DNA of 64,000 bases from Pontibacter burrus (GTDB lineage Bacteria; Bacteroidota; Bacteroidia; Cytophagales; Hymenobacteraceae): assembly GCF_010686685.1 (NCBI RefSeq), contig NZ_JAAGWD010000004.1, positions 62,001 through 126,000 of the forward strand. Direction: 5' to 3'. Each line of letters begins with the position of its first letter. Positions within the stretch are counted from its first letter, which is position 1. Under the pieces are notes generated by a model. It worked only from the letters and a program-made list of their open reading frames with translations. It ran no database searches and was not told where the DNA came from. A program made the position numbers and the translations under genes. Below, piece by piece: positions 1-64,000 of this stretch.

Positions 1-1
1 C

Positions 2-496
2 AATAAGAACAACGCCGACCTGTTTATATCCATCCACCTGAACGCAGGACCGCCTACAGCTTTCGGTACCGAAACTTATACTATGGGGTTGCACACATCC
101 AAAGGTAACCTGGATGTTGCCAAGCGCGAAAACTCCGTAATTCTGCACGAAGATAATTATAAAGAGAACTATGGCGGCTTTGATCCTAACTCTCCGCAAA
201 GCCATATCTTATTTACTTTACACCAGAGCGCATACATGGAGAACAGCCTGCGCTTTGCCCAGAAAGTTGAAAACGAGTTTAAAACACGTGCAGGGCGTAC
301 AAGCCGTGGCGTGAAGCAAGCTGGTTTTCTGGTGCTCTGGAAGTCGTATATGCCAAGTGTGCTGATAGAGTGTGGTTTTCTGACCAATGTGAACGAAGAA
401 AAATTTCTTAACGATAAAACGGGGCAATCGTATATGGCTTCAGGTATATATCGGGCTTTCAGAGATTATAAGAAAGAGCTCGAGGCCATGAACTAA
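2..496 (+). CDS. N-acetylmuramoyl-L-alanine amidase, C-terminal part (5' end outside window)
   Basis: The reading frame is open from the left edge, so the gene begins before the window; 164 residues are visible. It belongs to the Amidase_3 family, zinc enzymes that cut the bond between N-acetylmuramic acid and L-alanine in peptidoglycan, normally in the periplasm. Visible signatures are ISIHLNAG, whose His is a zinc ligand, the GTETYT strand, and LIECGFLTN, which carries the catalytic Glu and the typical end of the domain. The protein stops soon after the domain, so no C-terminal SPOR or LysM domain is present. The MlaD-like gene starts 20 bases downstream on the same strand, so the two are probably co-transcribed, an arrangement I recognise from other Bacteroidota. 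The internal ATG at base 83 is not the start. Confidence 0.92.
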   Translation, partial: NKNNADLFISIHLNAGPPTAFGTETYTMGLHTSKGNLDVAKRENSVILHEDNYKENYGGFDPNSPQSHILFTLHQSAYMENSLRFAQKVENEFKTRAGRTSRGVKQAGFLVLWKSYMPSVLIECGFLTNVNEEKFLNDKTGQSYMASGIYRAFRDYKKELEAMN

Positions 497-5481: not shown

Positions 5482-5498
5482 GTACTTCAAACTATAGT

Positions 5499-6089
5499 TT
5501 AGTATTTCCTGATCAAACAACCGGTAGCACGTTTATCAGCTACAGTTACGGCGCGATTGGCTAGCACTTCATCGATCACGTTTTTCAGATAGGGGTTTTT
5601 CACGCCGCTGTCTACCTGCGGGTTATCGTCTATAGCGCCTTTGTATTTTAAGATAAAGCTATCGCCGGTATTGTTTAGTACAAAGGCTTCCGGGGTTTTT
5701 GTGGCACCAAAACGGGCGCTTAGTTTTTGTCCATCATCAGCCAGGTACGGGAATCTATAGTTCTTGGCGGCCATTTCTTCCAGGGTTTCGCTACCTTCTC
5801 CCATACCTACGCCGGGGTTAATAAATATAAACTGTACGCCTTTGCTGGCATACGCGCTCGATAAGGTTACCAGGCGGTTCTCGTATAGTTTAGCATACGG
5901 GCAGGTGTTGTTGGTAAAAACCAGCACCACAGTTTTGCTGTTGGCAAAATCACTGAGCGATACCTCGGTGTTGCCTACTCCTTTCAGCGTAAAGTCTGCG
6001 ACCTTATCGCCCAGTTGGTAGCTGCTGCCCTGCGCAAATGCACTTATTGTTAAGAGCATGGCAAAGGCTAAGGTTGCTAATAATTTCAT
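5499..6089 (-). CDS. secreted redoxin/thioredoxin-fold protein
   Basis: The 196-residue protein has a signal peptide (cleavage near AFAQ, residue 20) and an AhpC/TSA-Redoxin domain (about 25-165; GDKVADFTLKGVG, TVVLVFTNNTCPYAK, KTPEAFVLN). Cys63 in TCPYA is the likely active thiol. It lacks the second Cys of a CXXC motif, but Cys191 near the C-terminus (TGCLIRKY) could be a resolving Cys. It acts in the periplasm or on the surface, probably in thiol-disulfide exchange. Its ATG lies one base after the stop of the phosphopantetheinyl transferase gene, so the two are translationally close. Specific partner unknown. Confidence 0.87.
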   Translation of the reverse strand: MKLLATLAFAMLLTISAFAQGSSYQLGDKVADFTLKGVGNTEVSLSDFANSKTVVLVFTNNTCPYAKLYENRLVTLSSAYASKGVQFIFINPGVGMGEGSETLEEMAAKNYRFPYLADDGQKLSARFGATKTPEAFVLNNTGDSFILKYKGAIDDNPQVDSGVKNPYLKNVIDEVLANRAVTVADKRATGCLIRKY

Positions 6090-9270: not shown

Positions 9271-10009
9271 GATTAAAATGATTCGGTGAGTTTATCTCAT
9301 CTGAATTGAAAGATACTTATTGATACAGAGGCAGCTGGTTCAGAAATGGGCTGGCTGTTTTTGTTTAGACCAGTGATTAAAAGGATTTATCGGATTAGGA
9401 GATTTTTGTCTGAACCGGGATTAAGGGGTTTGATGGATTGTTTGGATTGAGGTTTTGCTATAGTTGGAGTCGTAGTTCTATAGTTGGCAATTAACCCACC
9501 CCTGCCCCTCCCAAGAGGGGAATTTCGGCTATAGCTACAGTCCATGACTAGGCAGGCGCAGCCTGCCCTAAGGAACTATGACCACGATAATGCTACAAGC
9601 TATAACCATTCAACAAACTATAACGGTAGCTATCGAGTGATTTCAGTCTTTGGGTTGAGCGCCTTTGACTTGTTGCGGTGCCGCAGGCAACCCGAGCGCA
9701 GCGAGGATAGCAAGAAGGCAGCCGCGCGATGCCCGAAGACGGGGCCCCGCGGCCGTGAGCGCACCAAAGCAACTATAATACGATAGGTTAATTGAGCTCC
9801 CAGGATATGTGGTAACTATAGAATAAACTGCTTGTGTCCAGTTGTATTATAGTTGGCTATAGGCTATATAAGATCCTTCGACTAACGCTCAGGATGACAA
9901 AGGAGAACTATAGGCTGAGATAGATTTCTCACGAAGCTCGAAATGACAATGAAGTAAAGTGCAGAGAAGAAGCCTCGCTAACGCTCGGCAGAGCAACAGA
10001 AGAAATACA
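9271..10009. other. gene-free repeat mosaic between folB and meaB
   Basis: No convincing gene is present. In order it holds: a degenerate segment reading GTCTGAACCGGGATTAAGG (9405-9425 area), related to the 28610 and 55930 repeats; several CTATAG palindromes; the composite dispersed repeat copy A (9493-9846); a segment with CTTCGACTAACGCTCAGG (about 9873-9891); and GATTTCTCACGAAGCTCG (about 9924-9941). A frame of 80 codons at 9544-9786 is embedded in repeat DNA and is not counted as a gene. Confidence 0.8.
9493..9846 (+). repeat. composite dispersed repeat, copy A
   Basis: It aligns by eye, with gaps, to the reverse complement of 55463-55763. Shared blocks in order include AACCCACCCCT, CTCCCAAGAGGGGAA, GGCAGGCGCAGCCTG, AGCTATCGA, TTTCAGTCTTTGGGTTGAGC, GTGAGCGCACCAAAGC, GAGCTCCCAGGATA and CTGCTTGTGTC. 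Copy A has about 80 extra bases (about 9666-9752) that are G+C-rich, contain hairpins (GTTGC...GCAAC; CCGCG...CGCGG) and are absent from copy B. No transposase is encoded. Confidence 0.8.
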
Positions 10010-11245: not shown

Positions 11246-12649
11246 ATGAAAAAATTACTTTTAGCCGCTACAGCACTTCTGATGGCACCATTTGCAGTGC
11301 TGGCACAAACAGAAAGCAGCAGCTTTTCGGTGGTAAGCCGTGGCGGTGTTCAGAACACTTTTGTGCACGATTACCAAGCAATTGGTGTAAACCCTGCCAA
11401 CCTGGGCCGCAGCACCTCCTTTATCTCGTTTACCATCGCAGAGTTTGGTGGCTACGGTAGCTCACAGGCATTTACACGAGCCACCCTCAAAAACGCAATC
11501 AAGCTGGCATCTGATCAGAGCATCAGCATGGAAGAGCGCCTGCAACTAGCCAAAGCATTTAACAGTGACAACGTGCTGAATGCCGGTGCTGATATAAATA
11601 CGTTTGCCTTATCGGTGAACCTGCCGAAGATCGGTGGGTTTGCTGTGAGCAACAGACAGCGCATGTTGGGGCACGTGGCATTTAACAAAAACTTTTCTGA
11701 ATTGCTGTTCCTTGGCGAAGAAGCCCCTTTCTTAAAGGATATTCAGCCGGATGAAACGCTGTATGTATCGGAGCTGTTTGACGGTTCGCAGGTAAAAATG
11801 TCGTGGGTAAACGAGTGGAACCTGGCATACGGGCGCGAAATCATTGACCTGCCACTGATCAATATTTATGGTGGCGTAGGCTATAAATACCTGCAGGGGC
11901 TTGGCATGTATGAGTTCAGTGCGAAAGCTGGTAACCTGAAAGCTTACAACGCTTTATCGCCAGTACTGGATGCCGACTACGACAAGTACCTGGATGATCC
12001 TAAATTCAACTATAACAGCGCAGATGGTTTGCTGAACCCGGTTGGCCGCGGGCATGGTGTTGACTTAGGTCTTTCTGCCGAGATTGTTAAGATTGTAAAA
12101 GTAAGCGCTTCGGTAACAGATATAGGTAACATCCGCTGGACAAAGAACCTGCTGGAAGGGAAGGATAATGGCTTTACAATGGAAGATCTCGGCCGCACAG
12201 GAGCTGAGAACAGCGACTTCTGGGGCGATGCCGGTAAAATGGCGCAGGCTATAGTTGATAGCGCGCTGGTGTTTAGCCCGGTAGGAGAGATAAAAGTGAA
12301 CCTGCCGACGCGTTTCCGTTTTGGTGCCGGTGTAAAAATCGGACAGCGCCTGGAAGTAGGTGTGGATTATGTGGCTCCTCTTAACAAAGCTCCGGGCAAC
12401 ATTACCGACGATTTTGTTGGCCTGGGTATAGATTTCTCGCCGGTTCCTGTGTTCCGCCTGAGCTCAGGTGTATCGACTGGTGCGGGTGATAAATTGAATG
12501 TGCCGTTTGGTTTCGCTATAGTTTCGCCGGTTTATGAATTTGGTGTTGGTATGCGCGATGTAACGGCTCCGTTTACCAAAAATAACCCGGGAGCATCGTT
12601 TGCAATGGGCTTCTTACGCTTCAAGATTGGCAAACCACAGATTCTGTAA
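11246..12649 (+). CDS. DUF5723-like outer-membrane protein
   Basis: This 467-residue protein has a signal peptide (MKKLLLAATALL...VLAQ, about 1-21). The mature start contains YQAIGVNPANLGRSTSF, a hallmark I associate with DUF5723 and other FadL/PorV-like Bacteroidota barrels. The rest is rich in alternating aromatic/Gly strands (RFRFGAGVKIGQRLEVGVDYV), as expected for an outer-membrane beta-barrel. Function is unknown. The gene stands alone, convergent with the next one, with a 17-bp terminator stem between. The upstream gap (10991-11245) holds no gene. Confidence 0.84.
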   Translation: MKKLLLAATALLMAPFAVLAQTESSSFSVVSRGGVQNTFVHDYQAIGVNPANLGRSTSFISFTIAEFGGYGSSQAFTRATLKNAIKLASDQSISMEERLQLAKAFNSDNVLNAGADINTFALSVNLPKIGGFAVSNRQRMLGHVAFNKNFSELLFLGEEAPFLKDIQPDETLYVSELFDGSQVKMSWVNEWNLAYGREIIDLPLINIYGGVGYKYLQGLGMYEFSAKAGNLKAYNALSPVLDADYDKYLDDPKFNYNSADGLLNPVGRGHGVDLGLSAEIVKIVKVSASVTDIGNIRWTKNLLEGKDNGFTMEDLGRTGAENSDFWGDAGKMAQAIVDSALVFSPVGEIKVNLPTRFRFGAGVKIGQRLEVGVDYVAPLNKAPGNITDDFVGLGIDFSPVPVFRLSSGVSTGAGDKLNVPFGFAIVSPVYEFGVGMRDVTAPFTKNNPGASFAMGFLRFKIGKPQIL

Positions 12650-12683
12650 CTATAGTTAGCTGAATAGAAACTATAGTTTCGCA

Positions 12684-18542: not shown

Positions 18543-20375
18543 TTACTTATCTCCGTGCAGCTTGCGGTGTACCAGATCCAAGATGGTGCGCATGTCGCAG
18601 TCTTCGAAGATAAACTCGTCGTAACCGTTTGCGATCATCTCATCCTTCATGTGTTGCGGATCGTCGGCCAGGATGAGGGTTGGCTTGGCATGGTAGTTAC
18701 GGATACGCGGGCCGAACTCTTTCACATAATTTGCTTCTGATGACGACACAACCAGCACTTCGGCTGCCGTGTTTTCCAGTTTATCAGATGCTTCTTCAAC
18801 AGAACTATAGTTTTGCAGCTCCGTCTCGAAACCGGCACAGCTGAAGAACTCCTTGGCAAACGTAGCATTCACCTGGCGCTGCTCGCCGTTGCCAATTATG
18901 GCAACTATAGCTTTTGGTCGTCGCTGGCGTTTGCGCAGGTGCAGTTCGGTAGCCATGCGCATCACTTCGGTTGGGTAGGCGGCACGTGCTGTGTCAAATT
19001 TGTGGCTTTGTATCAGCTCTTCCGGGTCGAAGTTTATCGTTTCGGTTGGGTTCGGGTATTTGTTCGTTCCTACCAGCACCATGCGGCCGGTGGCAATATC
19101 ACGGAACTTGCGGCGGCTCACTTCGGTTATCGAGCCCAGTATAAAACCACTTTCGTAGGCAGCTTCAAAACCACCTTTGGCTTCTACTGCTTTAAACAGT
19201 TCCCACGCTTTGGTAGCCAGCTCATTCGTCAGCGACTCCAGGTAATACGAGCCGGCAGCCGGGTCAATGGCTTTATCTAAATAGGCTTCTTCTTTCAGGA
19301 TGATGGACACATTGCGGGCAATGCGCTCCGAGAATTCATCCGACTCCTTAAAGGTGCTGTCGAATGGCGAAACGGTAAGCGAGTTGGCTCCGGCAATAAC
19401 CGCCGACATAGCTTCGGTGGTCACGCGCAGCATGTTCACGTATGGATCAAGCGTAGTCTGGTACCAGCTGGATGTGGTGGAATGGATGCGCAGCGCACCG
19501 GCCAGTTTCGGGTCGGCCTGGTAAGCGTTAACTATAGTTGCCCACAGCAAACGCAAGGCACGCAGCTTGGCAATCTCGAAAAAGTAATTGGAGCCCGCAG
19601 CCATATGGAACTGCATGTTCTGCAACACCGATTCCAGCGACTGACCAGCATTGGTGAGCCTTGTGATGTAAGCAACCGCCGCATTCAGCGTAAAAGCAAT
19701 TTCCTGTGTAGCCGATGCGCCGATGCTGCTGAAGTTGATGCCGCTAACCGAAATACCAAAAAATGCAGGGCTCTCCTTTGTCTGCTCCAATATCTCGAGT
19801 ATGGCTTTGTTCTCCTCGCGCGATAATTCCCCCTTTGCCGTCATGCGGTCGTAGTTCAGGAAGCCACGCAGGTTTTGCGGCGACACCTGGTTGGCAGTCA
19901 GCTTGTTATACAGGCGGCTCGGGAAGTGGTCCAGCTTTTCGGGCAAACTATAGCCTACCGGTGTTTTGTTCAGGTCTATCTGGCCCAGCAGGTACACCAG
20001 GTCAAATTGCTCCGGCTGCGGAATTATAAAATGAATGCCATCGGCTCCGCGTGCCAGGGCATCGGTCGCCTTATCTATAGCTGCTCTGCCGTTGCCGGTG
20101 GCTTTAATTTCCTGTATGTTCAGCCAGCTGTTGCTGTCAGTTTGCGTACCGCGCACGAACGGGAAATCGCCTGGTTTCTGTCCTGTAAAAGGCAGCTGCT
20201 GTATGTCTTCTTTGGTGTAGTAGGGCTTAACGTCGATGTTTTCGTAGGTATGCCAGGTAAGCTGCTCCAGGGGCGTATCGCGCAGGTCTTTGCTGGCGCG
20301 GGCTTCCCAATCGGCGGCAGTGGCAGGTGTAAACTCCGAGAATAGCTTTTGTGTGTTGTTGCTATCGTCCGTCAT
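18543..20375 (-). CDS. mutA: methylmalonyl-CoA mutase, small subunit
   Basis: The protein has 610 residues and is homologous to the large subunit: barrel-type segments such as FFGISVSGINFSSIGAS, AIDPAAGSYYLESLTNELA and VEAKGGFEAAYESG, and a degenerate cobalamin-domain remnant at the end (AIVAIIGNGEQRQVNATFA). The DGHDRG cobalamin ligand motif is absent, as in non-catalytic MutA subunits. It pairs with MutB as a heterodimer. It probably shares an operon with the upstream DUF1232 gene (70 bases) and downstream NTF2-like and mutB genes. Confidence 0.93.
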   Translation of the reverse strand: MTDDSNNTQKLFSEFTPATAADWEARASKDLRDTPLEQLTWHTYENIDVKPYYTKEDIQQLPFTGQKPGDFPFVRGTQTDSNSWLNIQEIKATGNGRAAIDKATDALARGADGIHFIIPQPEQFDLVYLLGQIDLNKTPVGYSLPEKLDHFPSRLYNKLTANQVSPQNLRGFLNYDRMTAKGELSREENKAILEILEQTKESPAFFGISVSGINFSSIGASATQEIAFTLNAAVAYITRLTNAGQSLESVLQNMQFHMAAGSNYFFEIAKLRALRLLWATIVNAYQADPKLAGALRIHSTTSSWYQTTLDPYVNMLRVTTEAMSAVIAGANSLTVSPFDSTFKESDEFSERIARNVSIILKEEAYLDKAIDPAAGSYYLESLTNELATKAWELFKAVEAKGGFEAAYESGFILGSITEVSRRKFRDIATGRMVLVGTNKYPNPTETINFDPEELIQSHKFDTARAAYPTEVMRMATELHLRKRQRRPKAIVAIIGNGEQRQVNATFAKEFFSCAGFETELQNYSSVEEASDKLENTAAEVLVVSSSEANYVKEFGPRIRNYHAKPTLILADDPQHMKDEMIANGYDEFIFEDCDMRTILDLVHRKLHGDK

Positions 20376-20940: not shown

Positions 20941-22257
20941 ATGCAACATAAACTTTTACTAACTATAGTTGGTGCTGGCTTACTGGCGCTGCCTGCCGCT
21001 GCCCAGGATGCCAAACTACTTGCCCGTGCCAACAGCATGGCTGCTAGAGTAGAACCCAAAGTAATAGAGTGGCGCCGCGATTTCCACGAGCACCCCGAAT
21101 TGGGCAACCGCGAAGTAAAAACCGCTGCTAAAATTGCTGCCGAGCTAAAAAGACTGGGCATTGAAGTTGAAACCGGCGTAGCACATACGGGTGTGGTTGG
21201 CGTGCTGAAAGGCGGAAAACCCGGCCCTGTAGTTGCCCTGCGTGCCGATATGGATGGCCTGCCTGTAACAGAGCGTGCAGATGTGCCCTTTGCGAGCAAA
21301 ACAAAAGGAAACTATAACGGACAGGAAGTGGGCGTAATGCATGCCTGCGGCCATGATACGCACGTGGCCATGCTGCTGGGCGCAGCCGAAGTACTGGCCG
21401 GTATGAAAAAGGACTTGCCGGGGACAGTGAAGTTCATCTTTCAGCCTGCCGAAGAAGGCGCACCAGCCGGTGAGAAAGGCGGCGCCTCGCTGATGGTGGA
21501 AGAAGGTGTTTTAAGCAAAGGACCAAAGCCGGAAGTAATTTTCGGACTGCACATAAACTCCCAGACAGAAGTTGGTAAGCTGAAGTACCGCCCAGCTGGC
21601 ATTATGGCCAGTGCCGACCTGCTTCGCATAAAAGTGAATGGTAAGCAAGTACATGGCGCCAACCCATGGGCAGGGGTAGACCCGATTGTGGTGTCGGCGC
21701 AGATCATTAACGGCCTGCAAACTATAATTAGTCGCCAGATAGACCTGACCGAAGACGCTGCAGTAGTAACCATAGGAAGTATACATGGAGGCGTACGCAA
21801 CAACATCATCCCGGAAGAAGTGGTGTTAGAAGGTACCATCCGTGCGTTGGATGCCAACATGCAGAAACAGATACACGAACGCATAAAACTAACCGCAACC
21901 AAAATTGCCGAAAGCGCCGGTGCCACCGCCGAGGTAACGATAGAAGAAATGGCCCCGATCACCTTTAACGACGAAGCCCTGACCCAGCGCATGTTGCCTA
22001 CCCTGCAAACTATAGCCGGCAAAGGCAACGTGCTACTGATGAACGCCATGACCGGCGCCGAAGACTTTGCTTACTACCAGCAAGAAATTCCGGGTCTGTT
22101 CGTGTTTGTAGGCGGCATGAAAAAAGGCCAGGACCCCGCTACCGCACCAGCCCACCACACCCCCGACTTTTACATCGACGAAAGCGGCATGCAGCTAGGC
22201 GTTAAAACCCTGCTCGGCCTCACGCTGAACTATATGACGGGGAAGGAGAAGTTGTAA
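20941..22257 (+). CDS. M20-family amidohydrolase (IAA-amino acid hydrolase/hippurate hydrolase type), secreted
   Basis: This 438-residue enzyme has a signal peptide (cleavage near LPAAAQ, residue 22). Typical M20D motifs follow: WRRDFHEHPELGNRE, ALRADMDGLPV, HACGHDTHVAM (residues 134-144) with metal-binding Cys and His, IFQPAEEG with the catalytic Glu, and HTPDFYID near the end with another ligand His. These enzymes hydrolyse N-acyl or peptide-like amides. The exact substrate is not clear; a periplasmic peptidase-like role is likely. It stands alone, 30 bases before a membrane protein gene. Confidence 0.92.
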   Translation: MQHKLLLTIVGAGLLALPAAAQDAKLLARANSMAARVEPKVIEWRRDFHEHPELGNREVKTAAKIAAELKRLGIEVETGVAHTGVVGVLKGGKPGPVVALRADMDGLPVTERADVPFASKTKGNYNGQEVGVMHACGHDTHVAMLLGAAEVLAGMKKDLPGTVKFIFQPAEEGAPAGEKGGASLMVEEGVLSKGPKPEVIFGLHINSQTEVGKLKYRPAGIMASADLLRIKVNGKQVHGANPWAGVDPIVVSAQIINGLQTIISRQIDLTEDAAVVTIGSIHGGVRNNIIPEEVVLEGTIRALDANMQKQIHERIKLTATKIAESAGATAEVTIEEMAPITFNDEALTQRMLPTLQTIAGKGNVLLMNAMTGAEDFAYYQQEIPGLFVFVGGMKKGQDPATAPAHHTPDFYIDESGMQLGVKTLLGLTLNYMTGKEKL

Positions 22258-28038: not shown

Positions 28039-28059
28039 AAAAACTCTACTATAAAATAG

Positions 28060-43062: not shown

Positions 43063-45789
43063 TTATCTTGTGATAACCATTCTATTGCTTGATGTTTTGC
43101 CATCAGCTGTAATGCGGTATAAGTAGGTGCCACCTGGCAAATTGCTGCCATCAAATTCCAGGGCATGGCGGCCGGCTTTCTGCGTTTCTTGCAACAGAGT
43201 CTGCACTTTGCGGCCCATCACATCAAAAACCTCTACAGAAACAGGACCCTCAGTAGTTACTGAATAAGTGATCGTACTCAGGCCGGTGCTTGGGTTCGGA
43301 TAAGCGTAACTCTCTTCCCATTGTACACCTGCCTGCAGCGCAGCCGATGAAGTGGTAGCAACCGGTTGTGTAGCATTGTTCCAGCTGGAGTGTGTGCGGG
43401 TAATAATAACCGCAAACTCGGCGCGGGTAACATTTTGAGTTGGTTTAAAGGTAGCTTTCAGTTTAGGGAACAGCTCCAGCGGGCCCTGGGTAACACTATA
43501 TAAAGCATTTATCAGGCCCAGTTCAAGTGCGACGCTCACGTATCCTTCCAGGCCGGCAGGTATTTGTTTGGCATCATCAATCGGTATCTGTTTACCATCT
43601 ACAGTAACCGTAACGGCTTTACCATTACGCGCTAAAGCATGATCCTGCAAGCCCAGTGCCTGTACCAGCGAGTAAGCCAGACTTGCCCTGTTTACGTTAC
43701 CCGCCGGCGAGAATTTGCCCGTGCCATCTGGTAACATCACGCCATTATAAGTATGGAATCTGTCGCGCAGGGTAGCACCTTTTGCTGCAACCGATTCTCC
43801 TAACAACACCTCACTTCCTCTGAGGTCTGAGAATGTTGCAGCACCATTAACTGGTAGGTACTGGCGAATTCCCTGTCCCATTACCAGGTAGTCTGCCAGC
43901 TGAATGCGTTTGAGATAATCGTTTGGTTTAAAGCTGCCACTTATACCATCAACAAGGCGCGCGCCGACTGCCATTTTTATAGATGCCTCAGCCGGGTGGC
44001 CGGCAATATCGTTAAGGCCGGTGGTGCCGGTAACGCGCTGCTGGTGCAGGGTGCCGTTTATAGTTTCAGGTAAGCCAATGCCCTGTAAGCCTTCAACTTT
44101 CAAGGTCCACTGGCCGGGTGCAGGAGCGGCAACTGCTATACCCCGGTCAAAAGCCAGTGTAAATGTAACCGGAATGCCGGCGCGGTGCTCGCTTCCATCC
44201 GGACCCAGCAGAATCAGGTTAAGCGGGTTGCCCGTCAGACCAAGCAAGCCACCAGTACTTATTTTGGCTTCGATACTGTTGGTACCTTCTGTTACCTGAA
44301 AGCTGATCTGATTATTGGCAGTTAGAAGCGGGTTATAGTCAATAGTAAATGGTGTTACTTCGGTACTGGTATTTACATGGCTGCTGAAGCGACGTGTTAA
44401 GTTAGAGTAAGTGCCATAGGTCGTATTTCTGAAGATATGATCTACAGCAGCGTAGGCATTTACATAACCAGCACCTACTTCCCAAGGCTCATAGCCCGGC
44501 ATATTGGTCGCGGTTTTCTGCAGGATGTCTTTTACCTGGTCAGGCGAAAGCGAAGGATTGGCTTCGAGCATAAGGGCCACAATACCGGCGGCGAGTGGCG
44601 TAGCCATTGAGGTACCGCTCATATGTGTGTAAAACGGTACGTGCGCCGGTTCAAGTTCTTCCACGTCTTTCTGAATTTCCAGCGATGCTATAGGGGCAAT
44701 TACTCTGGTAGAAATTATATCTACACCGGGAGCAACTATAGTTGGGCGGTTTTCATAAGTCCAGGTTCTGCCATCTACAGTAAAGCTGCCGCCTTCGTTT
44801 TTAACTCCTCTGGATGAAAAATCTGCCAGTCTGCCATCTTTGTCGCCGGCACCAACCGAAATTACCCATGGCGCAATGGCATATGGGTTGTGTGTATCAG
44901 AGCTAGGGCCTTCGTTACCGGCTGCAAACAACGAGATCATACCACGGTCATAAGCCAGTTTTGAAGCAACGTTTACAGGATGGTTCGGATCAAAATCGCC
45001 GTTTGTACCCCACGAGTTTGAGATAACCCGGATGCCATACTGGTATTGGTTGGTTAGTGCATAATCGAAACCTCCCAGGGCATCCAGCACAAAAAGGGCA
45101 GCACCAGAACCATATCCGATCAGGTGGGCGCCAGGGGCAGCTCCTTCGTACTTGCCCCCCGATTTAGCACCCGTGCCGCCTACAGAGCCGGCGCAGTGCG
45201 TGCCGTGGCCTGAGTTGGTATCCGTGTTCGGCACGTTTTCGAGCCAGGTAACCGGCAGCAGGTCGCTCAGGGCATTCAGGTTCGTTACACCGAGCACGTT
45301 CTGCACCAGGTGTGTCCCGAACTTCAGGTCTTCATGGGTACCGTCCACACCGCTGTCAATAATCATCACACCCACACCTTTACCTGAAACCGGCATGCCG
45401 TTGTTGCGGGCAATCATGTCCTTATCGGTTCGTAGCTTACGCACACCAGTAAGGTGCGTGCCATCATGGTTAAAGTAAGTGAGCCGCTTGTTCAGGTAAA
45501 TAGAGCGTACCTGCGGGTTTTGTTCCAGCGCTGCAATCTGGGTGGCAGTAGCCAGAACGCCAGCGACAGGTAACGACTTGAACGTGATGCCTTTGGTAAT
45601 GCCCAGCGAGTTGAGCAGGGAGAGGTGTGCAGAGGTTGGTGCTGTATTTCCGTGGAAGGTAACAATAACGCCCAGTGAGCCGGTGGTGGTTTGCAGTAAG
45701 CTGCTCAGTTCCTTATCGAGTTTGCTTTGTGCATGGATGCTGCCCGTCAGGAAGAAGCAGAGCAGCAGCAAGCTTAAAATTCTAGTCAT
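43063..45789 (-). CDS. T9SS-secreted subtilisin-like serine peptidase with SLH-like repeats
   Basis: A protein of 908 residues. Signal peptide (ends SIHAQ, residue 21), an inhibitor-like prodomain (about 25-105), and an S8 domain with catalytic Asp145 (MIIDSGVDGTH), His195 (SGHGTHCAG) and Ser395 (SGTSMATP). A beta-rich region follows, then three segments like S-layer homology domains (SFKPNDYLKRIQLADYLV, KFSPAGNVNRASLAYSLV, FKPTQNVTRAEFAVIITR). The end is a T9SS type A sorting domain (PNPSTGLSTITY ... GGTYLYRITADGKTSSNRMV). It should be processed and displayed or released at the cell surface. Target unknown. Confidence 0.93.
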   Translation of the reverse strand: MTRILSLLLLCFFLTGSIHAQSKLDKELSSLLQTTTGSLGVIVTFHGNTAPTSAHLSLLNSLGITKGITFKSLPVAGVLATATQIAALEQNPQVRSIYLNKRLTYFNHDGTHLTGVRKLRTDKDMIARNNGMPVSGKGVGVMIIDSGVDGTHEDLKFGTHLVQNVLGVTNLNALSDLLPVTWLENVPNTDTNSGHGTHCAGSVGGTGAKSGGKYEGAAPGAHLIGYGSGAALFVLDALGGFDYALTNQYQYGIRVISNSWGTNGDFDPNHPVNVASKLAYDRGMISLFAAGNEGPSSDTHNPYAIAPWVISVGAGDKDGRLADFSSRGVKNEGGSFTVDGRTWTYENRPTIVAPGVDIISTRVIAPIASLEIQKDVEELEPAHVPFYTHMSGTSMATPLAAGIVALMLEANPSLSPDQVKDILQKTATNMPGYEPWEVGAGYVNAYAAVDHIFRNTTYGTYSNLTRRFSSHVNTSTEVTPFTIDYNPLLTANNQISFQVTEGTNSIEAKISTGGLLGLTGNPLNLILLGPDGSEHRAGIPVTFTLAFDRGIAVAAPAPGQWTLKVEGLQGIGLPETINGTLHQQRVTGTTGLNDIAGHPAEASIKMAVGARLVDGISGSFKPNDYLKRIQLADYLVMGQGIRQYLPVNGAATFSDLRGSEVLLGESVAAKGATLRDRFHTYNGVMLPDGTGKFSPAGNVNRASLAYSLVQALGLQDHALARNGKAVTVTVDGKQIPIDDAKQIPAGLEGYVSVALELGLINALYSVTQGPLELFPKLKATFKPTQNVTRAEFAVIITRTHSSWNNATQPVATTSSAALQAGVQWEESYAYPNPSTGLSTITYSVTTEGPVSVEVFDVMGRKVQTLLQETQKAGRHALEFDGSNLPGGTYLYRITADGKTSSNRMVITR

Positions 45790-52407: not shown

Positions 52408-52903
52408 TTTTGTAAATCTGAAGACTTGGAGAAGAGAAACTGATCTCCAAACTATAGCACTAAAATAAAGCGCCTGCTCTGGTTATCCGGGGTAGGCTTT
52501 TTATTTTTTAAGATTGTTCGAAGTTATAATTACCAGTAGTTTCTTCTTTGTCATCCTGAAAGGATCTTGTGGGCGTATAGCTAAGGCTTATGATATAGTC
52601 TATAGTTGCTGATACACGGTTGCTGGCGCTAGCGTCCTCGCTCGTAACGAACTATAGTTGGGCCTCTGCCCTAGTCGGATTATAAATCCACCTTTATAAG
52701 CAAGTCACGTATCACAGTTTCGCGCCAGCATAGGACTATAGTTCAAGTATAATTCTATAGTTGCAGCTATAGTTTGTTTTGCTTTTACAAAGCAGAGCCA
52801 GTTGCAGACTGGCTGCCATGCACCGCCACAAGTTACGCAAAAGCTAAACTTGCGGCATGTTTCCTGCTAATCCCAATAATCTCCTTAATCACCGGACTTC
52901 AAA
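52408..52903. other. gene-free repeat mosaic between M28 and queA
   Basis: It holds an imperfect terminator stem for the M28 gene (about 52468-52512), the segment TCATCCTGAAAGGATCTTG (52552-52570; related to 28373-28402), the CGAGCG element (52620-52648), six CTATAG palindromes (52600-52770 and near), and AATAATCTCCTTAATCACCG near 52875, related to 55950. A small frame at 52774-52998 lies across repeat DNA and antisense to queA and is not a gene. Confidence 0.75.
52620..52648. repeat. copy of the G+C-rich CGAGCG dispersed element
   Basis: TTGCTGGCGCTAGCGTCC then TCGCTCGTAAC matches the reverse complement of 28531-28557 and part of 5386-5418. A full AACTATAGTT palindrome follows immediately. 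Confidence 0.65.
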
Positions 52904-54615: not shown

Positions 54616-54635
54616 TCGGGTAACTATAGTTGGCG

Positions 54636-55172: not shown

Positions 55173-56000
55173 GGTTGTAGAGTTTATAGTTTGCAAAGGT
55201 AATGGTTTCCCCTTAATTCGCTGTTGCAGCAATGTCTGTTCTTTTCTTTCTGATGTTCAGATGATTTGGTTACAAGTAGGGGGAGGTTATAAAGTAAGAG
55301 TTTAGACTCTATAGGCTACCGTTCTGTAGTTCCTGTTTTGTCATGTCGAGCGTTAGTCGAGATATCTTATTTGTCCTGCCTATTGTCATTTCGAGTAAAG
55401 CGAGAAATCTATCTCAACTTATAGTTGCTAAACAGCCGTCGTTCTATAGCTAACTATAGTTGACAACTCGACACAAGCAGTTCGTTCTATAGTTTCCTCT
55501 TATCCTGGGAGCTTTACTCACCGACTGTGCTATAGTTTGCTTTGGTGCGCTCACGGAAACTCTCGAGGCGCTCAACCCAAAGACTGAAATCCTTCGATAG
55601 CTATAGTTCTTATGGTTGGAATGGCTATAGTTCTGTCGCCTTTCCGTGGTGGTAGTTCCTTGTGTCAGGCTGCGCCTGCCTACCGTGGTCTGTAACTATA
55701 GAACTTGGCTAGTGAAGTAGTAACGGCAGAAATTTCCCCTCTTGGGAGGGGTAGGGGTGGGTTAAAAGAGAAACTATGAAACTATAACTATAGCAGTAGC
55801 ACATAAACGCCCTCTGCTGTTTTTAGGAGAGGGCTGGGGTGAGGTAAAAATTCCCCGCCTTAGAGAAGGAGGGGTTAGGGGTGGTTGGAATAACGCCAAC
55901 TATAGAACTATAGCCACAAGTACACCAATATCCTAATCCCACAAAACCTGATTCAAACATTCTCCTCAATCACCGGGCCATCCAGCAACACCTGAAAAAT
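55173..56000. other. gene-free repeat mosaic upstream of the 54636 gene
   Basis: It holds the repeat TGTCGAGCGTTAGTCGAGAT (55344-55364) and CATTTCGAGTAAAGCGAGAA (55387-55406), which occur in the opposite order near 9873-9945, the composite repeat copy B (55463-55763), two CCCC/GGGG mini-elements (near 55815-55840 and 55850-55890) and 11 CTATAG palindromes. No gene is supported. Confidence 0.8.
55463..55763 (-). repeat. composite dispersed repeat, copy B (inverted relative to copy A)
   Basis: The reverse complement aligns by eye with 9493-9846 over its full length. It lacks the G+C-rich insertion of about 80 bases seen in copy A; here GCGCCT is followed within nine bases by CCGTGAGCGCACCAAAGC. 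Confidence 0.8.
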
Positions 56001-56034
56001 AAAATCCCGGCAGAAAGAAACTGCCGGGATTTTG
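56001..56034 (-). terminator. terminator after the SprF/PorP gene
   Basis: AAAATCCCGGCAG (56001-56013) pairs perfectly with CTGCCGGGATTTT (56021-56033). It closes the leftward giant adhesin-SprF unit. Confidence 0.9.
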
Positions 56035-56058
56035 AGCTAAACTGATCTATAACTATGT

Positions 56059-60000: not shown

Positions 60001-63000
60001 CTGAAGAACGATGTAGTGGAAACCGATAAGCTGTTACCACCGGTAGCTACATTGAACCAGCGGTAAGTATAGCCTGGCTCCGGCGCAGACACTGAAAGCG
60101 TAGCACGTGCTCCGGCACAGATCGTAATGTTATTGGCTTGTGGTGTTGTTGGGGCAGAAAGCGTGGTTACTTTTACGATGTTGGTTCGCTGGGCAGGGCA
60201 GATGCCGTTTGGTACGGAAGCCACTCTGCGGAACCAGGTAGCTACGTGCAGCGCGCCCGGCTGGTAATCTCTGCCGGTTGCACCCGCTATCGGGCTATAG
60301 TTTGTACCGTCTTCACTGCTTTCCCACTGGTAGGTTACCGAACCTGCTCCACTCATCGCCGAAGAACCAACTATAAGTGCCGGCGTAGCTCCGCTACAGA
60401 TCATCTGGTTGCCGCTGACAATGCTGTTGTTGGAGATTGGCTGCGTAACATAAGCCGTAACTATAGTTCGGGCGGTGTTTGCACAACCTGATGCCGTAAC
60501 AGCTTCTATGTAATAAATGGCATCGGAAGCGAGGGCAGGTGTTGTGTACGTTGAGCCTGTGGCTACCAGTATTTCGTTGTCGTCGTACCAGTTGTAAACT
60601 ATAGTTGGGGCGGCGTTCTCAACATAAAGGGTCGCTGTACTGCCTGCGCAGATACGAACATCGCTTGCTACAGGTGCTGCAGGCAATGGCGTCACTGTCA
60701 CATTCACGGCCTCACGCGGACTTGTGCAGCTTGGAGATGCCTGTGGCGCTGCCTCTACATAGTAAGTGGTACTGGTGAAAATGGCCTCAGCTGGTTTATA
60801 GCTTGTGCCGGCTGCCAGCGGTGCCCCGTTCTTATCAAACCATCTGTAAATAAGCGTGGCATCCGGGTTAGAAACGGTTAACGTTACCCGCTCGCCTGCG
60901 CAAATGGTAAGATCTGCTGCTACCGGCATGGCAGGCTGTGGTGTAACAGTAACCGTAACTGCACGGCGTGACGGGCTGATACATCCGTAAGCCGAAACGG
61001 CTTCTACATAATAGGTTCTGTTAGAAGTAAGCGCATTGGTTGTGTAGGATGTTCCGGAAGCTACCGGCGTGCCACCTGTTGCGGTGCTATACCAGTTGTA
61101 AGTAACATCGGGAGCTACAGAGTTTATAGTTAAGGTGGCTGCTGTGCCGGAGCAAACTGTTACGTTATCTGCAACAGGTAAAGCCGGAAGTGGTGTAACG
61201 TTAACGGCTACTGCTTTGCGGCCACCGGTACAGGCAGGAGTACCACCTGTTGTTGCCTCTACATAATAAACAGCGTTTGTAGTAAGCGCCGGCGTGGTAA
61301 ACGAAGTTCCGGTTGCCAGTAAATTACCGCCTGCATCGTACCACCTGTAAGTGTAGCTCAATGTTGGTGCTGTTACGGTTAAAATTGCGCTCTGGCCGGC
61401 ACAGATGGTTCTGTCGTCGGCTTGTGGCAGAGCTGGCATTGGCTGTACGGTTACAGTTACCGGCTTACGCGCGCTGGAACAACCATTTGAGCTCACTGCT
61501 TCAACGTAATATGTAGCAGATGCTGTAAGGATGGCTGTTGTGTAAGAGTCGCCGGTGGCTATGCTGCTACCGCCTGTTGCTACATTATACCAGCGGTAGG
61601 TTAGGTTTGCATCCGGGTTATTTACCTGCAGCGTTGCTGTTGCATTCTCGCAGATTGTTCGGTTGTCGGCAAGTGGCGTCGCAGGAATCGGTGCAACCGT
61701 AACTTTTACTACGTTGCTATAGTGTGCCGGGCAGGTTCCGTTAGCTGTTTTTACGATGCGTCGGTACCAGGTAGTGGCGGTTAACGCCCCAGGAGCATAG
61801 TGCTGACCGGTGGCGTTTGCTATAGTTGTAAAATTGGTGCCATTCTCGCTGCGTTCCCACTGGTAAGCAAAGTCGCTGCCGTTGGCTGCCGGTAATGTTC
61901 CCGTAAGCTGGGCTGGAATGCTGCCACTGCAAATGGTTTGGTTAGCGGTAATGCTGTTGTTGGTGATCGGAGGAGTTACGGTTACAGTTACTGTTCTGCG
62001 GGATGGGCTCACACAGGCTGTTGATGTACTGGTAACTGCTTCCAGTTGGTAAGTCTGGCTGTAACCCAGGATATCTGTTGTAAAGGAGATACCGGTTGCA
62101 ACCACTGTTCCGCCCTCATACCAACGATAAATTAACCCCGGCTGTGGGTTTTTTACCCAAAGCGTGGCATTGTCGCCGGCACATATCACAGCATTATCTG
62201 CATCTGGTGTAGCAGGCAATGGCGTTACCTGCACGGTTACCGCACCGCGCGATGTGCTGGCGCAGCCGCCTACCGATACGGCTTCTACATAAAACGTGGT
62301 GGTCGCGTTAACAGCATTAATAGCATAGGTATTGCCTGTTGCCAGTAGTGTACCACCAGACGCTGCTGTGTACCAACGGTAAGTTAAAGTAGCAGCCGGA
62401 TCTTTTACCGCTAGGGTAGCAGCTGAACCGGTGCAGATGGTGATGCTTTCAGCAATTGGTGTTGGCGGTAATGGTGTAACGGTAACTGCAACCTGCGATC
62501 GTGGGCTTACGCATCCTGCGGTTGTTGCTGCTTCCAGGTAATAGATTCTGTCTGAAGTAAGGGTACCGGTACTGAAGGATGTGCCTGTTGCAATTGGTGA
62601 GCCTCCCGTAGCAGAAGTATACCAGTTGTAAACCAGGTTTACATCTGGCGACTGTACAGTTAAGCTGGCTGCTGTTCCGGTACAAATAGTTACATCAGAA
62701 GCAACCGGCGTTGTCGGGATCGGGCTTACCGTAACTATAACAGCCTTACGCGGACTGGTGCAGACAGGGCCTGTTACTGTGCTCGCTTCTACAAAGTATG
62801 TAGTGCTGTTTGTTAATAATTCTGTTGTGTAGGTTGTTCCCGTTGTCAGAAGATCGCCGTTAACATTAAACCAGCGGTAAACCATTGTCGGGTCCGGGGA
62901 AGTTACTGAAAGCGTTGTTCTCTGTCCGGCACAAATGGTTCTGTCCTGCGCCTGCGGCATAGCTGGCTGAGGCTTCACAGTTACAGTTATTGCCCTTCTG

Positions 63001-64000
63001 CTGCTTACACAACCTGCACTGCTTGTCGCATCCACATAATAAGTAGTGGTGGCCGTAAGTGCTTCCGTAGTTAAGGTTGGTCCAACTCCAATCGGGTTAA
63101 CTGCTGTTGCCGAACTATACCACTTATAAGTGAGTGTGGCATCCGGAGATGTTACACTTAATCTTACAGTTTCGCCGGCACAGATCGTGCTGTTGGCAAC
63201 AGCAGGCGTAATTGGTAACGGAGAAACCGTAACTTTTACTGCATTACTCACATGCTCCGGGCACGCCCCTGTTGCTGATTTTACTTTTCTGCGGAACCAG
63301 GTGCTTATAGTTAAAGAGCCCGGTGCATAAGATGCATTGTTCGCGCCTGCTATACTGGAGAAGTTAACACCGTCTTCGCTGCGCTCCCACTGGTAAGTGT
63401 AAGTGCCGCTGCCACCTGTTGGCGAGGTGCCCGTAAGGCTGGTCGCGGTTCCGCCACTGCAGATGGTCTGGTTGGCAGAAATGGTATTGTTGCCGATGTT
63501 TGGCGTAACAGTAACTATAACTGTTCTGCGGGATGGGCTGGTGCAGGCTGTACTGGTGTTAGCCACAGCTTCCACGAAGAACGTAGTACTGTTACCGAGT
63601 ATAGCAGTCGTAAAAGTAACTCCGGAAGAAAGTAGCGTACCGCCGGAATACCAGTTATAAGTAACTGTAGGGTCTGGGTTCTTTACAAACAGAACAGCTG
63701 CATCTCCGGCACAAATGGTCGTGTTATCAACTTCTGGCGTAGCTGGTAGCGGCGTTACGGTTACATAAACCTCTTTTCTGTCCGGACTGGTGCAGCCGCC
63801 TATAGTTGCAGCTTCCAGGTAATAGGTTGTGTTTGCTGATAGAATTCCGGTTGTATAGTTGGTGCCGGTCGCAAGTAAGGTGCCTTCTGTTTCTGCATCA
63901 TACCAACGATAAACCAGGTTGGCATCCGGCGAAAGCACTGCCAGGGATGCAGAGCTGCCAGCACAAATAGCAACGTTATCAGCCTCTGGTATAGCAGGTA
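57072..64000 (-). CDS. giant Ig-repeat surface protein with T9SS type B sorting domain (5' end outside window)
   Basis: At least 2308 residues are visible and the frame runs off the right edge. It is made of about 20 Ig-like repeats of some 75-80 residues (consensus P.ATP.A...TICAG..ATL.V..P, Y.WY, TTYYVEAV, AVTVTVTP) and five longer repeats of about 90 residues with YQWE.S.DG.NF..I and W.RR.V (beginning ITNNSI..NQTICSG). These are grouped as two units then a long one, etc. Near the end is a PKD-like SWSPATGLTAPTSPTP domain and then TPNGDGINDVF ... VEIYTRWGEKIFESKGY ... YYYIIYLSKDEAPI, the gliding-motility type B sorting domain. It is a secreted adhesin-like or gliding protein paired with the downstream SprF. 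Seven CTATAG palindromes occur inside it. Confidence 0.93.
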   Translation of the reverse strand, partial: PAIPEADNVAICAGSSASLAVLSPDANLVYRWYDAETEGTLLATGTNYTTGILSANTTYYLEAATIGGCTSPDRKEVYVTVTPLPATPEVDNTTICAGDAAVLFVKNPDPTVTYNWYSGGTLLSSGVTFTTAILGNSTTFFVEAVANTSTACTSPSRRTVIVTVTPNIGNNTISANQTICSGGTATSLTGTSPTGGSGTYTYQWERSEDGVNFSSIAGANNASYAPGSLTISTWFRRKVKSATGACPEHVSNAVKVTVSPLPITPAVANSTICAGETVRLSVTSPDATLTYKWYSSATAVNPIGVGPTLTTEALTATTTYYVDATSSAGCVSSRRAITVTVKPQPAMPQAQDRTICAGQRTTLSVTSPDPTMVYRWFNVNGDLLTTGTTYTTELLTNSTTYFVEASTVTGPVCTSPRKAVIVTVSPIPTTPVASDVTICTGTAASLTVQSPDVNLVYNWYTSATGGSPIATGTSFSTGTLTSDRIYYLEAATTAGCVSPRSQVAVTVTPLPPTPIAESITICTGSAATLAVKDPAATLTYRWYTAASGGTLLATGNTYAINAVNATTTFYVEAVSVGGCASTSRGAVTVQVTPLPATPDADNAVICAGDNATLWVKNPQPGLIYRWYEGGTVVATGISFTTDILGYSQTYQLEAVTSTSTACVSPSRRTVTVTVTPPITNNSITANQTICSGSIPAQLTGTLPAANGSDFAYQWERSENGTNFTTIANATGQHYAPGALTATTWYRRIVKTANGTCPAHYSNVVKVTVAPIPATPLADNRTICENATATLQVNNPDANLTYRWYNVATGGSSIATGDSYTTAILTASATYYVEAVSSNGCSSARKPVTVTVQPMPALPQADDRTICAGQSAILTVTAPTLSYTYRWYDAGGNLLATGTSFTTPALTTNAVYYVEATTGGTPACTGGRKAVAVNVTPLPALPVADNVTVCSGTAATLTINSVAPDVTYNWYSTATGGTPVASGTSYTTNALTSNRTYYVEAVSAYGCISPSRRAVTVTVTPQPAMPVAADLTICAGERVTLTVSNPDATLIYRWFDKNGAPLAAGTSYKPAEAIFTSTTYYVEAAPQASPSCTSPREAVNVTVTPLPAAPVASDVRICAGSTATLYVENAAPTIVYNWYDDNEILVATGSTYTTPALASDAIYYIEAVTASGCANTARTIVTAYVTQPISNNSIVSGNQMICSGATPALIVGSSAMSGAGSVTYQWESSEDGTNYSPIAGATGRDYQPGALHVATWFRRVASVPNGICPAQRTNIVKVTTLSAPTTPQANNITICAGARATLSVSAPEPGYTYRWFNVATGGNSLSVSTTSFFSVDGLTAETTYYVEAVNAGGCVSPRKAVTVFVTPLPATPQAENSVICSGERTTLSVTNPDVNLNYRWFDKDGNLVGNNSSYQTPNLTQNTVYYVEAYTTSAQACASPRKAVTVSVQALPTAPDLSNAIICAGSETTLIVNQANAAFKYKWYTVATGGVAIHTGTSYETGALTSNKTYYVEAINSSDCVSSRTPVNVTVALLPATPVAANKAICAGQTVTLSVTQTDLTISHRWYNKAGDLLATGNNFVIAGLTESTTYYVEAVTAAGCVSPARKAVVVSVAPLPATPTVAGASICSGEKVTLFVANPDPALTYKWYNDVAGTEVIGTGISFTSETALYSSRSYYVEAVNTAGCTSAARVQANVQVVGKPSTPVANDATICTGSPATLSVVAPDPELEYRWTDANGTMVGVGTNYTTVPLSSNATFYVTAYRAIPGTTAYCAGPAEAVTVTVTSAITNNTVSGTQTICSGSAPSLLQGSQPAGTGLATPYYQWEQSTDGVNFVSIVGAYAQNYTPGTLTQDTWYRRRVNVAGPCGESISNAVRITVSQLPAMPQADNVTVCAGSAVTLRINNPTSALSYRWYYTASGGTAIASGVTFATQPLHTTTTYYVEAVNTVDADKGIACASSNRRAVTITVNQLITDNTISNPQVICSGNVPAALTGSVAFESGQPYTYQWQQSFDGGNFINITGATGQHYAPTEAATRTVWYRRVVRSSGPCADHISNAVKMDVVPRPTLPTIASVSICPGATAILQANGILPGTKLEWYDAPKGGTYLGEGTMYRATPYSTTSYWVQAVNSNGCESATRQEVRVTVVEPQAYVSADVTIREGRSTKLTASGGATYSWSPATGLTAPTSPTPLANPEKTTTYTVTITTAEGCTATASVTVTVVPAIIPMNAMTPNGDGINDVFHVENLDKYPDCRVEIYTRWGEKIFESKGYSEPWNGTHNGKQMPLGAYYYIIYLSKDEAPISGSITIIK

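What the first reader, a model, noticed from the sequence alone, without database searches (positions are those of the whole stretch)
1..64000. Highly iterated palindrome CTATAG / AACTATAGTT across genes and gaps
By hand count CTATAG occurs about 130 times (one per about 490 bp), and the full 10-base palindrome AACTATAGTT 19 times. With base composition near 47% G+C, independent bases predict about 17 and 0.1. Variants (TTATAGTT, AACTATAA) are also common. It occurs in both coding and non-coding DNA on both strands. The pattern resembles HIP1 of cyanobacteria or DNA-uptake sequences; I do not know of a description for this organism group. The function is unknown: methylation, uptake, repair or chromosome organisation are possible.
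Basis: partly seen in the sequence, partly recalled or inferred. Interest (0 to 1): 0.85.

Follow-up and report, generated by a model that had tools for sequence, protein, structure and literature searches.

The report
Genome-wide DNA watermark with dialects
Species of the bacterium Pontibacter carry thousands of copies of a short DNA word scattered over their genomes, related species use different versions of the word at the same places, and the pattern looks most like the self-recognition tags that some bacteria use when they take up DNA, although the protein that reads it is unknown.

Summary
CTATAG occurs 130 times and AACTATAGTT 19 times in the window (third-order Markov: 43 and 0.8). The whole genome holds 1300 AACTATAGTT against 9 for the reversed control. 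In the genus Pontibacter the palindrome is one of four "dialects" of a TATA-centred word: TATAGTT (5 of 50 genomes, 3 more mixed), TATACCT (12), TATACTT (19), [TC]ATACCC (1). Nine of 50 have none, one is weak. Only the first is palindromic. Copies arise by substitution and are about twice as conserved as anagram controls. At aligned orthologous positions a copy is often rewritten into the host's own dialect. Density is highest in gaps between convergent genes. Two methyltransferase families do not track it. The best analogue is the DNA uptake sequence of Neisseriaceae and Pasteurellaceae, spread by molecular drive. But no type IV pilus ATPase was found, genomes without the motif keep comEC and dprA, and no reader protein was identified. 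Uptake drive is favoured, not shown.

The parts
1..64000 (.). 130 CTATAG sites spread over the whole window (dialect A core; palindromic, so both strands)
5490..5499 (.). AACTATAGTT copy 1 of 19
12648..12657 (.). AACTATAGTT copy 2 of 19 (pair with next, 21 bp apart)
12669..12678 (.). AACTATAGTT copy 3 of 19
18803..18812 (.). AACTATAGTT copy 4 of 19
19530..19539 (.). AACTATAGTT copy 5 of 19
20961..20970 (.). AACTATAGTT copy 6 of 19
25623..25632 (.). AACTATAGTT copy 7 of 19
29014..29023 (.). AACTATAGTT copy 8 of 19
29293..29302 (.). AACTATAGTT copy 9 of 19
31465..31474 (.). AACTATAGTT copy 10 of 19
32022..32031 (.). AACTATAGTT copy 11 of 19
33139..33148 (.). AACTATAGTT copy 12 of 19
36197..36206 (.). 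AACTATAGTT copy 13 of 19
44734..44743 (.). AACTATAGTT copy 14 of 19
52650..52659 (.). AACTATAGTT copy 15 of 19
54622..54631 (.). AACTATAGTT copy 16 of 19
55452..55461 (.). AACTATAGTT copy 17 of 19
60459..60468 (.). AACTATAGTT copy 18 of 19
60597..60606 (.). AACTATAGTT copy 19 of 19
28052..28100 (+). hairpin just after dnaA (26593-28038) whose two arms are an inverted pair of TATAGTT; fold -29.9 kcal/mol, z -7.6. The same hairpin after dnaA in a TATACCT species (L083) carries TATACCT in both arms
55233..56058 (.). 826-base gap with 11 CTATAG sites, the most of any gap in the window
52408..52903 (.). gap with 6 CTATAG sites between convergent genes
9271..10009 (.). gap with 6 CTATAG sites

Best explanation
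Shown: the window lies in a Pontibacter genome in which TATAGTT (full palindrome AACTATAGTT) is an iterated, dispersed 7-10-mer. Across the genus the same kind of motif exists in four dialects that share TATA (or CATA) plus G/C plus pyrimidines, copies tend to be kept in place at orthologous sites, and a share of them is rewritten there when a lineage changes dialect. Inferred: some DNA-processing protein with 7-8 bp specificity reads the motif and biases which alleles spread. The most likely such process is natural transformation. DNA carrying the cell's own motif is preferentially taken up (or preferentially recombined), so every chance point mutation that makes or improves a copy is favoured (molecular drive), until purifying selection in genes and promoters stops it.
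For: Thousands of dispersed copies on both strands in 40 of 50 genomes, with lineage-consistent dialects. In-place switching: 825 of 3536 aligned TATACCT sites read TATACTT in TATACTT genomes (offset control 0.13%), 790 of 3339 the other way (0.15%) (pairs of related genomes, not independent). The commonest single change is the dialect change: T6C 563 of 1038 from C to B, C5G 100 of 395 from C to A, against T6C 27 of 336 from C to motif-free genomes. Counted once per place, 46 of the 725 orthologous groups in which some class shows its own dialect show two or three dialects, each in its own class. Motif copies are conserved about twice as often as anagram 7-mers (59/28, 66/31, 52/22%), with gap rates close to controls (8.8/6.7, 2.8/2.6, 9.0/6.8%), so copies arise mainly by substitution. 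Densest where constraint is probably weakest. comEC and dprA present in 50 of 50 and disrupted together in the same two genomes, G022 and G009 (Fisher p 0.0024 with G018's comEC frameshift also counted as broken), which suggests one shared pathway that can be lost. G022 has the highest near-miss/motif ratio of 19 TATACTT genomes (3.58; others 1.33-3.33, about 12-20 kb each). Dialects, in-place conservation and permissive placement are reported for neisserial DUS (PMC3630211, PMC2397512).
Against: The nine motif-free genomes all keep comEC and dprA as full-length open frames, so the core import genes do not track the motif. No type IV pilus or T2SS ATPase is evident in 50 genomes (partial matches of 18.8-25.9 bits; 3 of 50 just over the cut-off of 24.9, over about 60 of 370 positions); secretins and pilins were not searched. 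No receptor found; a DUF5689 candidate taken from Riemerella does not track the motif. G009 has broken comEC and dprA but no motif decay, and G020, with intact comEC and dprA, has slightly fewer copies per Mb (449) than G022 (461). The old word is often kept after a switch: TATACTT in A genomes at 171 of 1340 aligned C sites against 147 for TATAGTT, TATACCT in C genomes at 461 of 3536 B sites. Inverted pairs 8-28 bp apart in gaps are fewer than direct pairs (9 against 71, 11 against 20, 3 against 5; in dialect A palindromes blur the orientation), unlike the frequent inverted terminator pairs of Neisseria. No paper on competence or DNA uptake in Pontibacter was found.
Confidence: 0.5

Rival explanations
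1. HIP-like: an orphan DNA methyltransferase recognises the motif, and a methylation-dependent mismatch repair bias (Elhai's model for HIP1) creates and protects copies.
For: Dialect A is a highly iterated palindrome. CTATAG in the window (130 in 64 kb, about 2000 per million) is in the range given for HIPs (500-2500 per million bases, PMC4390886 section 7).
Against: Dialects B, C and D are not palindromic. PF01555 is absent in A genomes G000, G018, G048, G054. PF00145 is absent in 7 of 12 B genomes. C genomes G023, G042, G014, G052 and G022 have neither. PF02086, PF02384 and PF07669 were not surveyed across the genus.
Confidence: 0.15
2. Binding site of a nucleoid or chromosome-organising protein, kept by selection on the binding density, with drifting specificity.
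For: Conservation in place, dialect change at orthologous sites, near-equal numbers on both strands.
Against: Several thousand copies leave very weak selection on each one (inference). Copies concentrate where constraint is probably weakest, and in the A and B samples show clusters and deserts rather than even spacing. Nine genomes of the same genus do without.
Confidence: 0.17
3. Chi-like recombination hotspot read by a RecBCD/AddAB enzyme.
For: Chi sequences are over-represented and differ between lineages (recalled). The motif is short and asymmetric in B and C.
Against: No leading-strand preference in the closed C genome sampled: 222 of 479 sites on the G-rich strand (summed by hand), p 0.12; 400 of 5462 kb examined, in the one genome with broken competence genes. 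Palindromic in A. 1.7 to 3.4 times denser outside genes.
Confidence: 0.09
4. Transcription-related element (terminator or 3' end signal).
For: Highest in convergent gaps; the hairpin after dnaA carries the dialect word in both arms.
Against: More than half of the copies lie inside genes (650 of 1169, 549 of 851, 366 of 479). In convergent gaps the orientation to the nearer gene differs between dialects (B 48 sense, 24 antisense; C 19 and 55). Close inverted pairs are a minority.
Confidence: 0.05
5. Copies of a mobile repeat or insertion product.
For: Short-range clustering of copies; one heptamer tandem array in P. chinhatensis; gap rates at motif positions slightly above controls.
Against: Flanks unrelated; most unmatched motif positions align without gaps, as controls do.
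Confidence: 0.02

Closest known systems
DNA uptake sequence (DUS) dialects of Neisseriaceae
   Same: Thousands of short dispersed copies, lineage-specific dialects with an invariant core, one genome with two dialects in similar numbers, copies more conserved than their surroundings and sited in permissive DNA (PMC3630211 abstract and section 6; PMC2397512 passages).
   Different: Core is ATA, not CTG; motif 7-8 bp; one dialect palindromic; other phylum (Bacteroidota); no type IV pilus ATPase found, so no ComP-type minor-pilin receptor is expected; close inverted pairs a minority; competence and uptake bias not shown.
Uptake signal sequence (USS) of Pasteurellaceae
   Same: Many short dispersed copies thought to mark self DNA (PMC7811141, start of abstract in a search listing), sited in permissive regions (PMC2397512 passages).
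   Different: Different sequence and host; no pilus ATPase here; the long flanking consensus of USS (recalled) is not seen.
Highly iterated palindrome HIP1 and alternate HIPs of cyanobacteria
   Same: Iterated palindrome at high density, replaced by other words in some lineages (PMC4390886 abstract and section 7).
   Different: Three of four dialects are not palindromes; the two methyltransferase families tested do not track the motif.
Chi sites
   Same: Short over-represented lineage-specific words (recalled).
   Different: No strand preference in the genome sampled, palindromic dialect, gap enrichment.

Membership tests
DNA uptake sequence / uptake signal sequence | Short word over-represented genome-wide, dispersed, both strands | tested here: met
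DNA uptake sequence / uptake signal sequence | Lineage-consistent dialects with a conserved core | tested here: met
DNA uptake sequence / uptake signal sequence | Copies conserved in place and sited in permissive DNA | tested here: met
DNA uptake sequence / uptake signal sequence | Frequent closely spaced inverted pairs acting as terminators | tested here: inconclusive
   one clear case after dnaA in A and B species; overall a minority of close pairs
DNA uptake sequence / uptake signal sequence | Competence genes present | tested here: met
   comEC 50 of 50, dprA 50 of 50; both disrupted in G022 and G009, comEC alone also in G018; other competence genes not searched
DNA uptake sequence / uptake signal sequence | Type IV pilus machinery with a sequence-specific minor pilin | tested here: not met
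   only short partial PF00437 matches in 50 genomes; pilins and secretins not searched
DNA uptake sequence / uptake signal sequence | Motif enhances uptake or transformation | not testable with these tools
   needs bench work
Highly iterated palindrome (HIP) | The iterated word is a palindrome | tested here: not met
   met in dialect A only; B, C and D are not palindromes
Highly iterated palindrome (HIP) | Cognate methyltransferase in the genomes with the word | tested here: inconclusive
   PF01555 and PF00145 do not track; other classes not surveyed; specificity not determinable
Chi site | Oriented with replication | tested here: not met
   222 of 479, p 0.12, one genome, 400 kb
Mobile interspersed repeat (REP, MITE) | Conserved flanks or insertion of a unit | tested here: not met

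The most novel reading that the evidence does not exclude
Bacteroidota have their own DNA self-recognition system for transformation: a motif family with switching dialects in Pontibacter (and separate iterated words in Hymenobacter species), read by a receptor that is not a pilus and is unlike any known uptake-sequence receptor. Dialect changes would set barriers to gene exchange between species.
Probability: 0.4. Interest if true: 0.93.

Novelty: new variant of a known kind. Interest (0 to 1): 0.85.

Why it matters
Uptake sequences are established in two proteobacterial families (PMC3630211; PMC7811141, start of abstract). A dialect system in another phylum, in cells without a detectable type IV pilus ATPase, would mean that sequence-specific DNA acceptance evolved more than once and with other hardware. 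The genus supplies a natural experiment: four dialects, mixed genomes, motif-free genomes in more than one place on the tree, and two genomes with broken comEC plus dprA. Reader, drive and species barriers therefore become testable.

Tried and rejected
Protein 49116-50846 as a locus anchor: not conserved in the genus, replaced by dnaA. Type IV pilus ATPase PF00437: no real match. DUF5689, taken from the Riemerella competence screen (PMC8459023): 22 of 50 genomes. Of six loci read, five have the same kind of neighbouring gene (SusD-like by eye, no family search made); neither form of the protein tracks the motif. Methyltransferase families PF01555 and PF00145: do not track. comEC neighbourhood read in six loci: no obvious receptor gene by eye. 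Single species pairs gave too few switched sites (2 to 4 of 12 to 28; 1 of 20 and 1 of 31 between C and A), so the pooled pair counts repeat a limited set of sites. therefore counts distinct groups, but it examined only about 20 kb around dnaA (49 genomes; G007 has no dnaA match) and 5 kb around comEC (20 genomes). The C set also held L105, a mixed genome; one search left it out. Desert check: three stretches, holding 7 of the 46 motif deserts over 2.6 kb listed for the three sampled genomes, were looked up by 10 of their ORFs: a low-GC glycosyltransferase island (L255), an integrase plus restriction-modification element (L244) and an ordinary-looking ABC transporter operon (L253). This is suggestive only. 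Gene calls in scripts are my own crude ORF calls. Rfam and tRNA scans of the window found one tRNA-Leu and nothing that bears on the motif.
Full report
OBSERVATION. The window has 130 CTATAG and 19 AACTATAGTT; a third-order Markov model expects 43.0 and 0.81, and CTATAGTT is the top 8-mer at 69 against 5.9. Beyond the 10 bases the flanks carry almost no information, and they are unrelated between sites (6 of 130 best flank matches at 24/40 or more, against 2 of 130 random places). The window is part of a 4.31-Mb genome (G000) with 1300 AACTATAGTT, against 9 for the reversed pattern. Coding DNA has 1.4 CTATAG per kb and non-coding DNA 7.0 per kb in the window.

WHOSE GENOME. dnaA at 26593-28038 gives a protein 98-99% identical to DnaA of Pontibacter populi and P. 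fetidus, so the window is from a Pontibacter species.

THE GENUS HAS DIALECTS. AACTATAGTT is high (1087-1477) in 5 of 50 genomes (G000, G018, G047, G048, G054), intermediate in 3 (G061 330, G045 232, G063 104) and 0-28 in the other 42. Most of the others are not motif-free; they use another word. CTATACCT has 1397-2713 copies per strand in 12 genomes and 81-435 in the other 38 (reversed control 27-119). TTATACTT has 1116-3584 per strand in 19 genomes and 1928-3141 in the 3 mixed ones (reversed control 35-183); G047, of dialect A, has 1045 and 1080 as well. G059 has a fourth word, GGGTATA (56 against 15.1 expected in 61 kb) and GGGTATG (36 against 10.7). G007 (87% complete) is weak (587 and 614 TTATACTT). 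Nine (G041, G046, G053, G055, G056, G057, G058, G002, G024) show none of the three words at such levels, nor a TATA word of comparable excess in 40-61 kb each. The classes therefore count A 5, mixed 3, B 12, C 19, D 1, weak 1, none 9. Forms: [C/T]TATAGTT, [C/G]TATACCT, [T/C]TATACTT, and CATACTT as a second C form. Only A is a palindrome: 204 of 1169 TATAGTT copies in the G054 sample have AAC on the left, giving 102 full palindromes, while AGGTATACCT and AAGTATACTT are rare in the B and C samples (9 of 851 and 9 of 479).

TREE. Eleven proteins around dnaA, concatenated (3833 columns; quick IQ-TREE; 49 genomes and 2 outgroups; the window genome is only 43% filled), place B in one 12-genome clade (support 100) and the A genomes with G061 and G045 in one 7-genome clade (100). 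C is scattered over several branches (4 changes), so it is probably ancestral (inference). The motif-free genomes fall in more than one place (3 changes), with G059 (D) next to G057 (none). Motif-free genomes are larger (median 5.8 against 4.6 Mb, p 1.3e-5, rounded sizes, not corrected for kinship, G007 left out).

IN-PLACE SWITCHING. In aligned dnaA regions a TATACCT site in a B genome reads TATACTT in a C genome in 825 of 3536 cases (offset control 0.13%), the reverse in 790 of 3339 (0.15%), A to B 141 of 1545, A to C 168 of 1900, B to A 120 of 1172, C to A 147 of 1340 (controls 0.22-0.29%) (pairs of related genomes, not independent). The old word is often kept too: TATACCT in C genomes 461 of 3536, TATACTT in A genomes 171 of 1340, TATACTT in B genomes 93 of 3339. 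The spectrum of changes supports switching: C to B, T6C is 563 of 1038 single changes against 27 of 336 towards motif-free genomes; B to C, C6T is 563 of 1175 against 33 of 302; C to A, the transversion C5G is 100 of 395; A to C, G5C is 100 of 254 against 4 of 71; A to B and B to A, the double change is seen 85 times each way. Counted once per orthologous place, 1004 groups exist. In 725 of them at least one class shows its own dialect, and 46 of these (21 BC, 16 AC, 1 AB, 8 ABC) show two or three classes each with its own word. Foreign words also occur: C genomes carry the B word in 71 groups and the A word in 60, A genomes the C word in 61 and the B word in 24, B genomes the C word in 27 and the A word in 13 (about 20 kb around dnaA, 49 genomes, and 5 kb around comEC, 20 genomes). 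Single pairs give only a few switched sites (2-4 of 12-28, or 1 of 20 and 1 of 31 between C and A). Per native site, 174 of 400 B sites with an aligned C genome show the C word in some C genome (the B word: 166), 126 of 454 C sites show the B word in some B genome (the C word: 72), and 85 of 423 C sites show the A word in some A genome (the C word: 110). The hairpin after dnaA shows the switch by eye: TATAGTT in both arms in A species, TATACCT in both arms in L083.

MAINTENANCE AND PLACEMENT. Within a dialect the 7-mer is identical at aligned places in 59, 66 and 52% of cases (A, B, C), against 28, 31 and 22% for anagram 7-mers. Gap rates are close to controls (8.8/6.7, 2.8/2.6, 9.0/6.8%), so copies come and go mainly by substitution. 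In 400-kb samples, densities per kb in coding / tandem / divergent / convergent DNA are 1.98/6.05/6.46/8.85 (A, G054), 1.71/3.76/2.76/7.04 (B, G010) and 1.07/1.63/1.86/2.18 (C, G022, atypical, see below). Pooled C loci at dnaA give 1.63/4.84/2.84/7.94. In the A and B samples spacing shows short-range clusters and long deserts compared with an exponential. Of three desert stretches looked up, two are low-GC glycosyltransferase or integrase/restriction islands and one is an ordinary-looking operon. There is no leading-strand preference in G022 (222 of 479, p 0.12).

WHO READS IT. PF00437 gives only short partial matches (18.8-25.9 bits; 3 of 50 genomes just over the cut-off of 24.9), so no type IV pilus or T2SS ATPase is evident. 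comEC is present in 50 of 50 and dprA in 50 of 50. comEC is broken in G022, G009 and (one frameshift) G018; the open frame is 702 codons or more in the other 47. dprA is broken in G022 and G009 only, by open frames (Fisher p 0.0024). G022 also has the highest near-miss/motif ratio of 19 C genomes (3.58; others 1.33-3.33) and the lowest TTATACTT density of its nine-genome clade (461 per Mb against 710 or more). Against this, G009 shows no decay, and G020, with intact comEC and dprA, has 449 per Mb. All nine motif-free genomes keep full-length comEC and dprA frames. So the import core does not track the motif; a specificity factor would have to. DUF5689 does not fit. PF01555 (31 of 50 genomes) and PF00145 (23 of 50) methyltransferases do not track it.

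MECHANISM. Steps shown: iterated word, dialects, substitution origin, conservation, switching at orthologous places, permissive placement. Steps inferred: a reader with 7-8 bp specificity; a bias that spreads copies one by one. Several thousand copies make site-by-site selection for a chromosomal function hard, so a drive or a mutation bias is more plausible (inference). Biased uptake in transformation is the known process that gives dialects of this kind (DUS: PMC3630211 abstract and section 6; drive and permissive sites: PMC2397512 passages). In Riemerella, another bacterium of this phylum, competence works without detected pilus genes, through ComEC, DprA, ComF, RecA and unfamiliar proteins placed in the envelope by prediction (PMC8459023 abstract, passages and section 19), so such a reader need not be a pilin. 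Confidence 0.5.

KNOWN OR NEW. Full-text searches (open-licence PMC papers only; some listings capped at 12-15) listed no paper whose title or abstract start speaks of such a motif in Pontibacter or of uptake sequences in Bacteroidetes; apart from the four papers cited with sections or passages, only listings were seen. HIP1 (PMC4390886: abstract, sections 7 and 9, part 1 of section 18) is the nearest palindromic case, but it is tied to methyltransferases and palindromes, which three of the four dialects do not fit.

BROADER. Some Hymenobacter loci show their own iterated words: CTAGGCCA in H. fodinae and H. wooponensis, CCTAGGTT in H. cavernae, TGCCCCCC in H. roseosalivarius, H. sp. BT188 and H. 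qilianensis. Adhaeribacter terrigena has AACGCTAT (about 20 kb each; the script printed only loci over a threshold and three chosen ones). This suggests a wider family-level phenomenon and was not followed.

Noticed in passing
L128, L132, L142, L135, L141, L143 (Hymenobacter), L117 (Adhaeribacter terrigena): Other strongly iterated 8-mers in sister genera: CTAGGCCA, CCTAGGTT, TGCCCCCC, AACGCTAT. Possibly separate systems of the same kind.
   Followed up: no
G022 (L292, L312) and G009 (L293, L313): comEC and dprA are both disrupted in the same two of 50 genomes, apparently independently (one is a C genome, one a B genome).
   Followed up: partly
G041, G046, G053, G055, G056, G057, G058, G002, G024: The motif-free genomes are larger (median 5.8 against 4.6 Mb), not corrected for kinship.
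   Followed up: no
L093:18661-18730 (P. chinhatensis): Tandem array of the heptamer AAGTATA with about ten copies, made of the dialect C word itself.
   Followed up: no
window 28633-37460: All eight proteins tested between 28633 and 37460 match no other dnaA locus over 70% of their length (each found in 1 of 51 loci, the window itself): a rearrangement or insertion right after dnaA in the window genome.
   Followed up: no
window 56059-63938: PorP/SprF gene beside a 2288-aa ORF: may be a type IX secretion partner and a giant surface protein; no CTATAG at 58-60 kb.
   Followed up: no
L244:33-4402: Low-GC island free of the TATACCT word with a MmeI/Eco57I-like restriction-methylase and a phage integrase.
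   Followed up: partly
L056, L059, L062 (G061, G045, G063): Genomes with two dialects at once (TATAGTT and TATACTT), perhaps in transition.
   Followed up: partly
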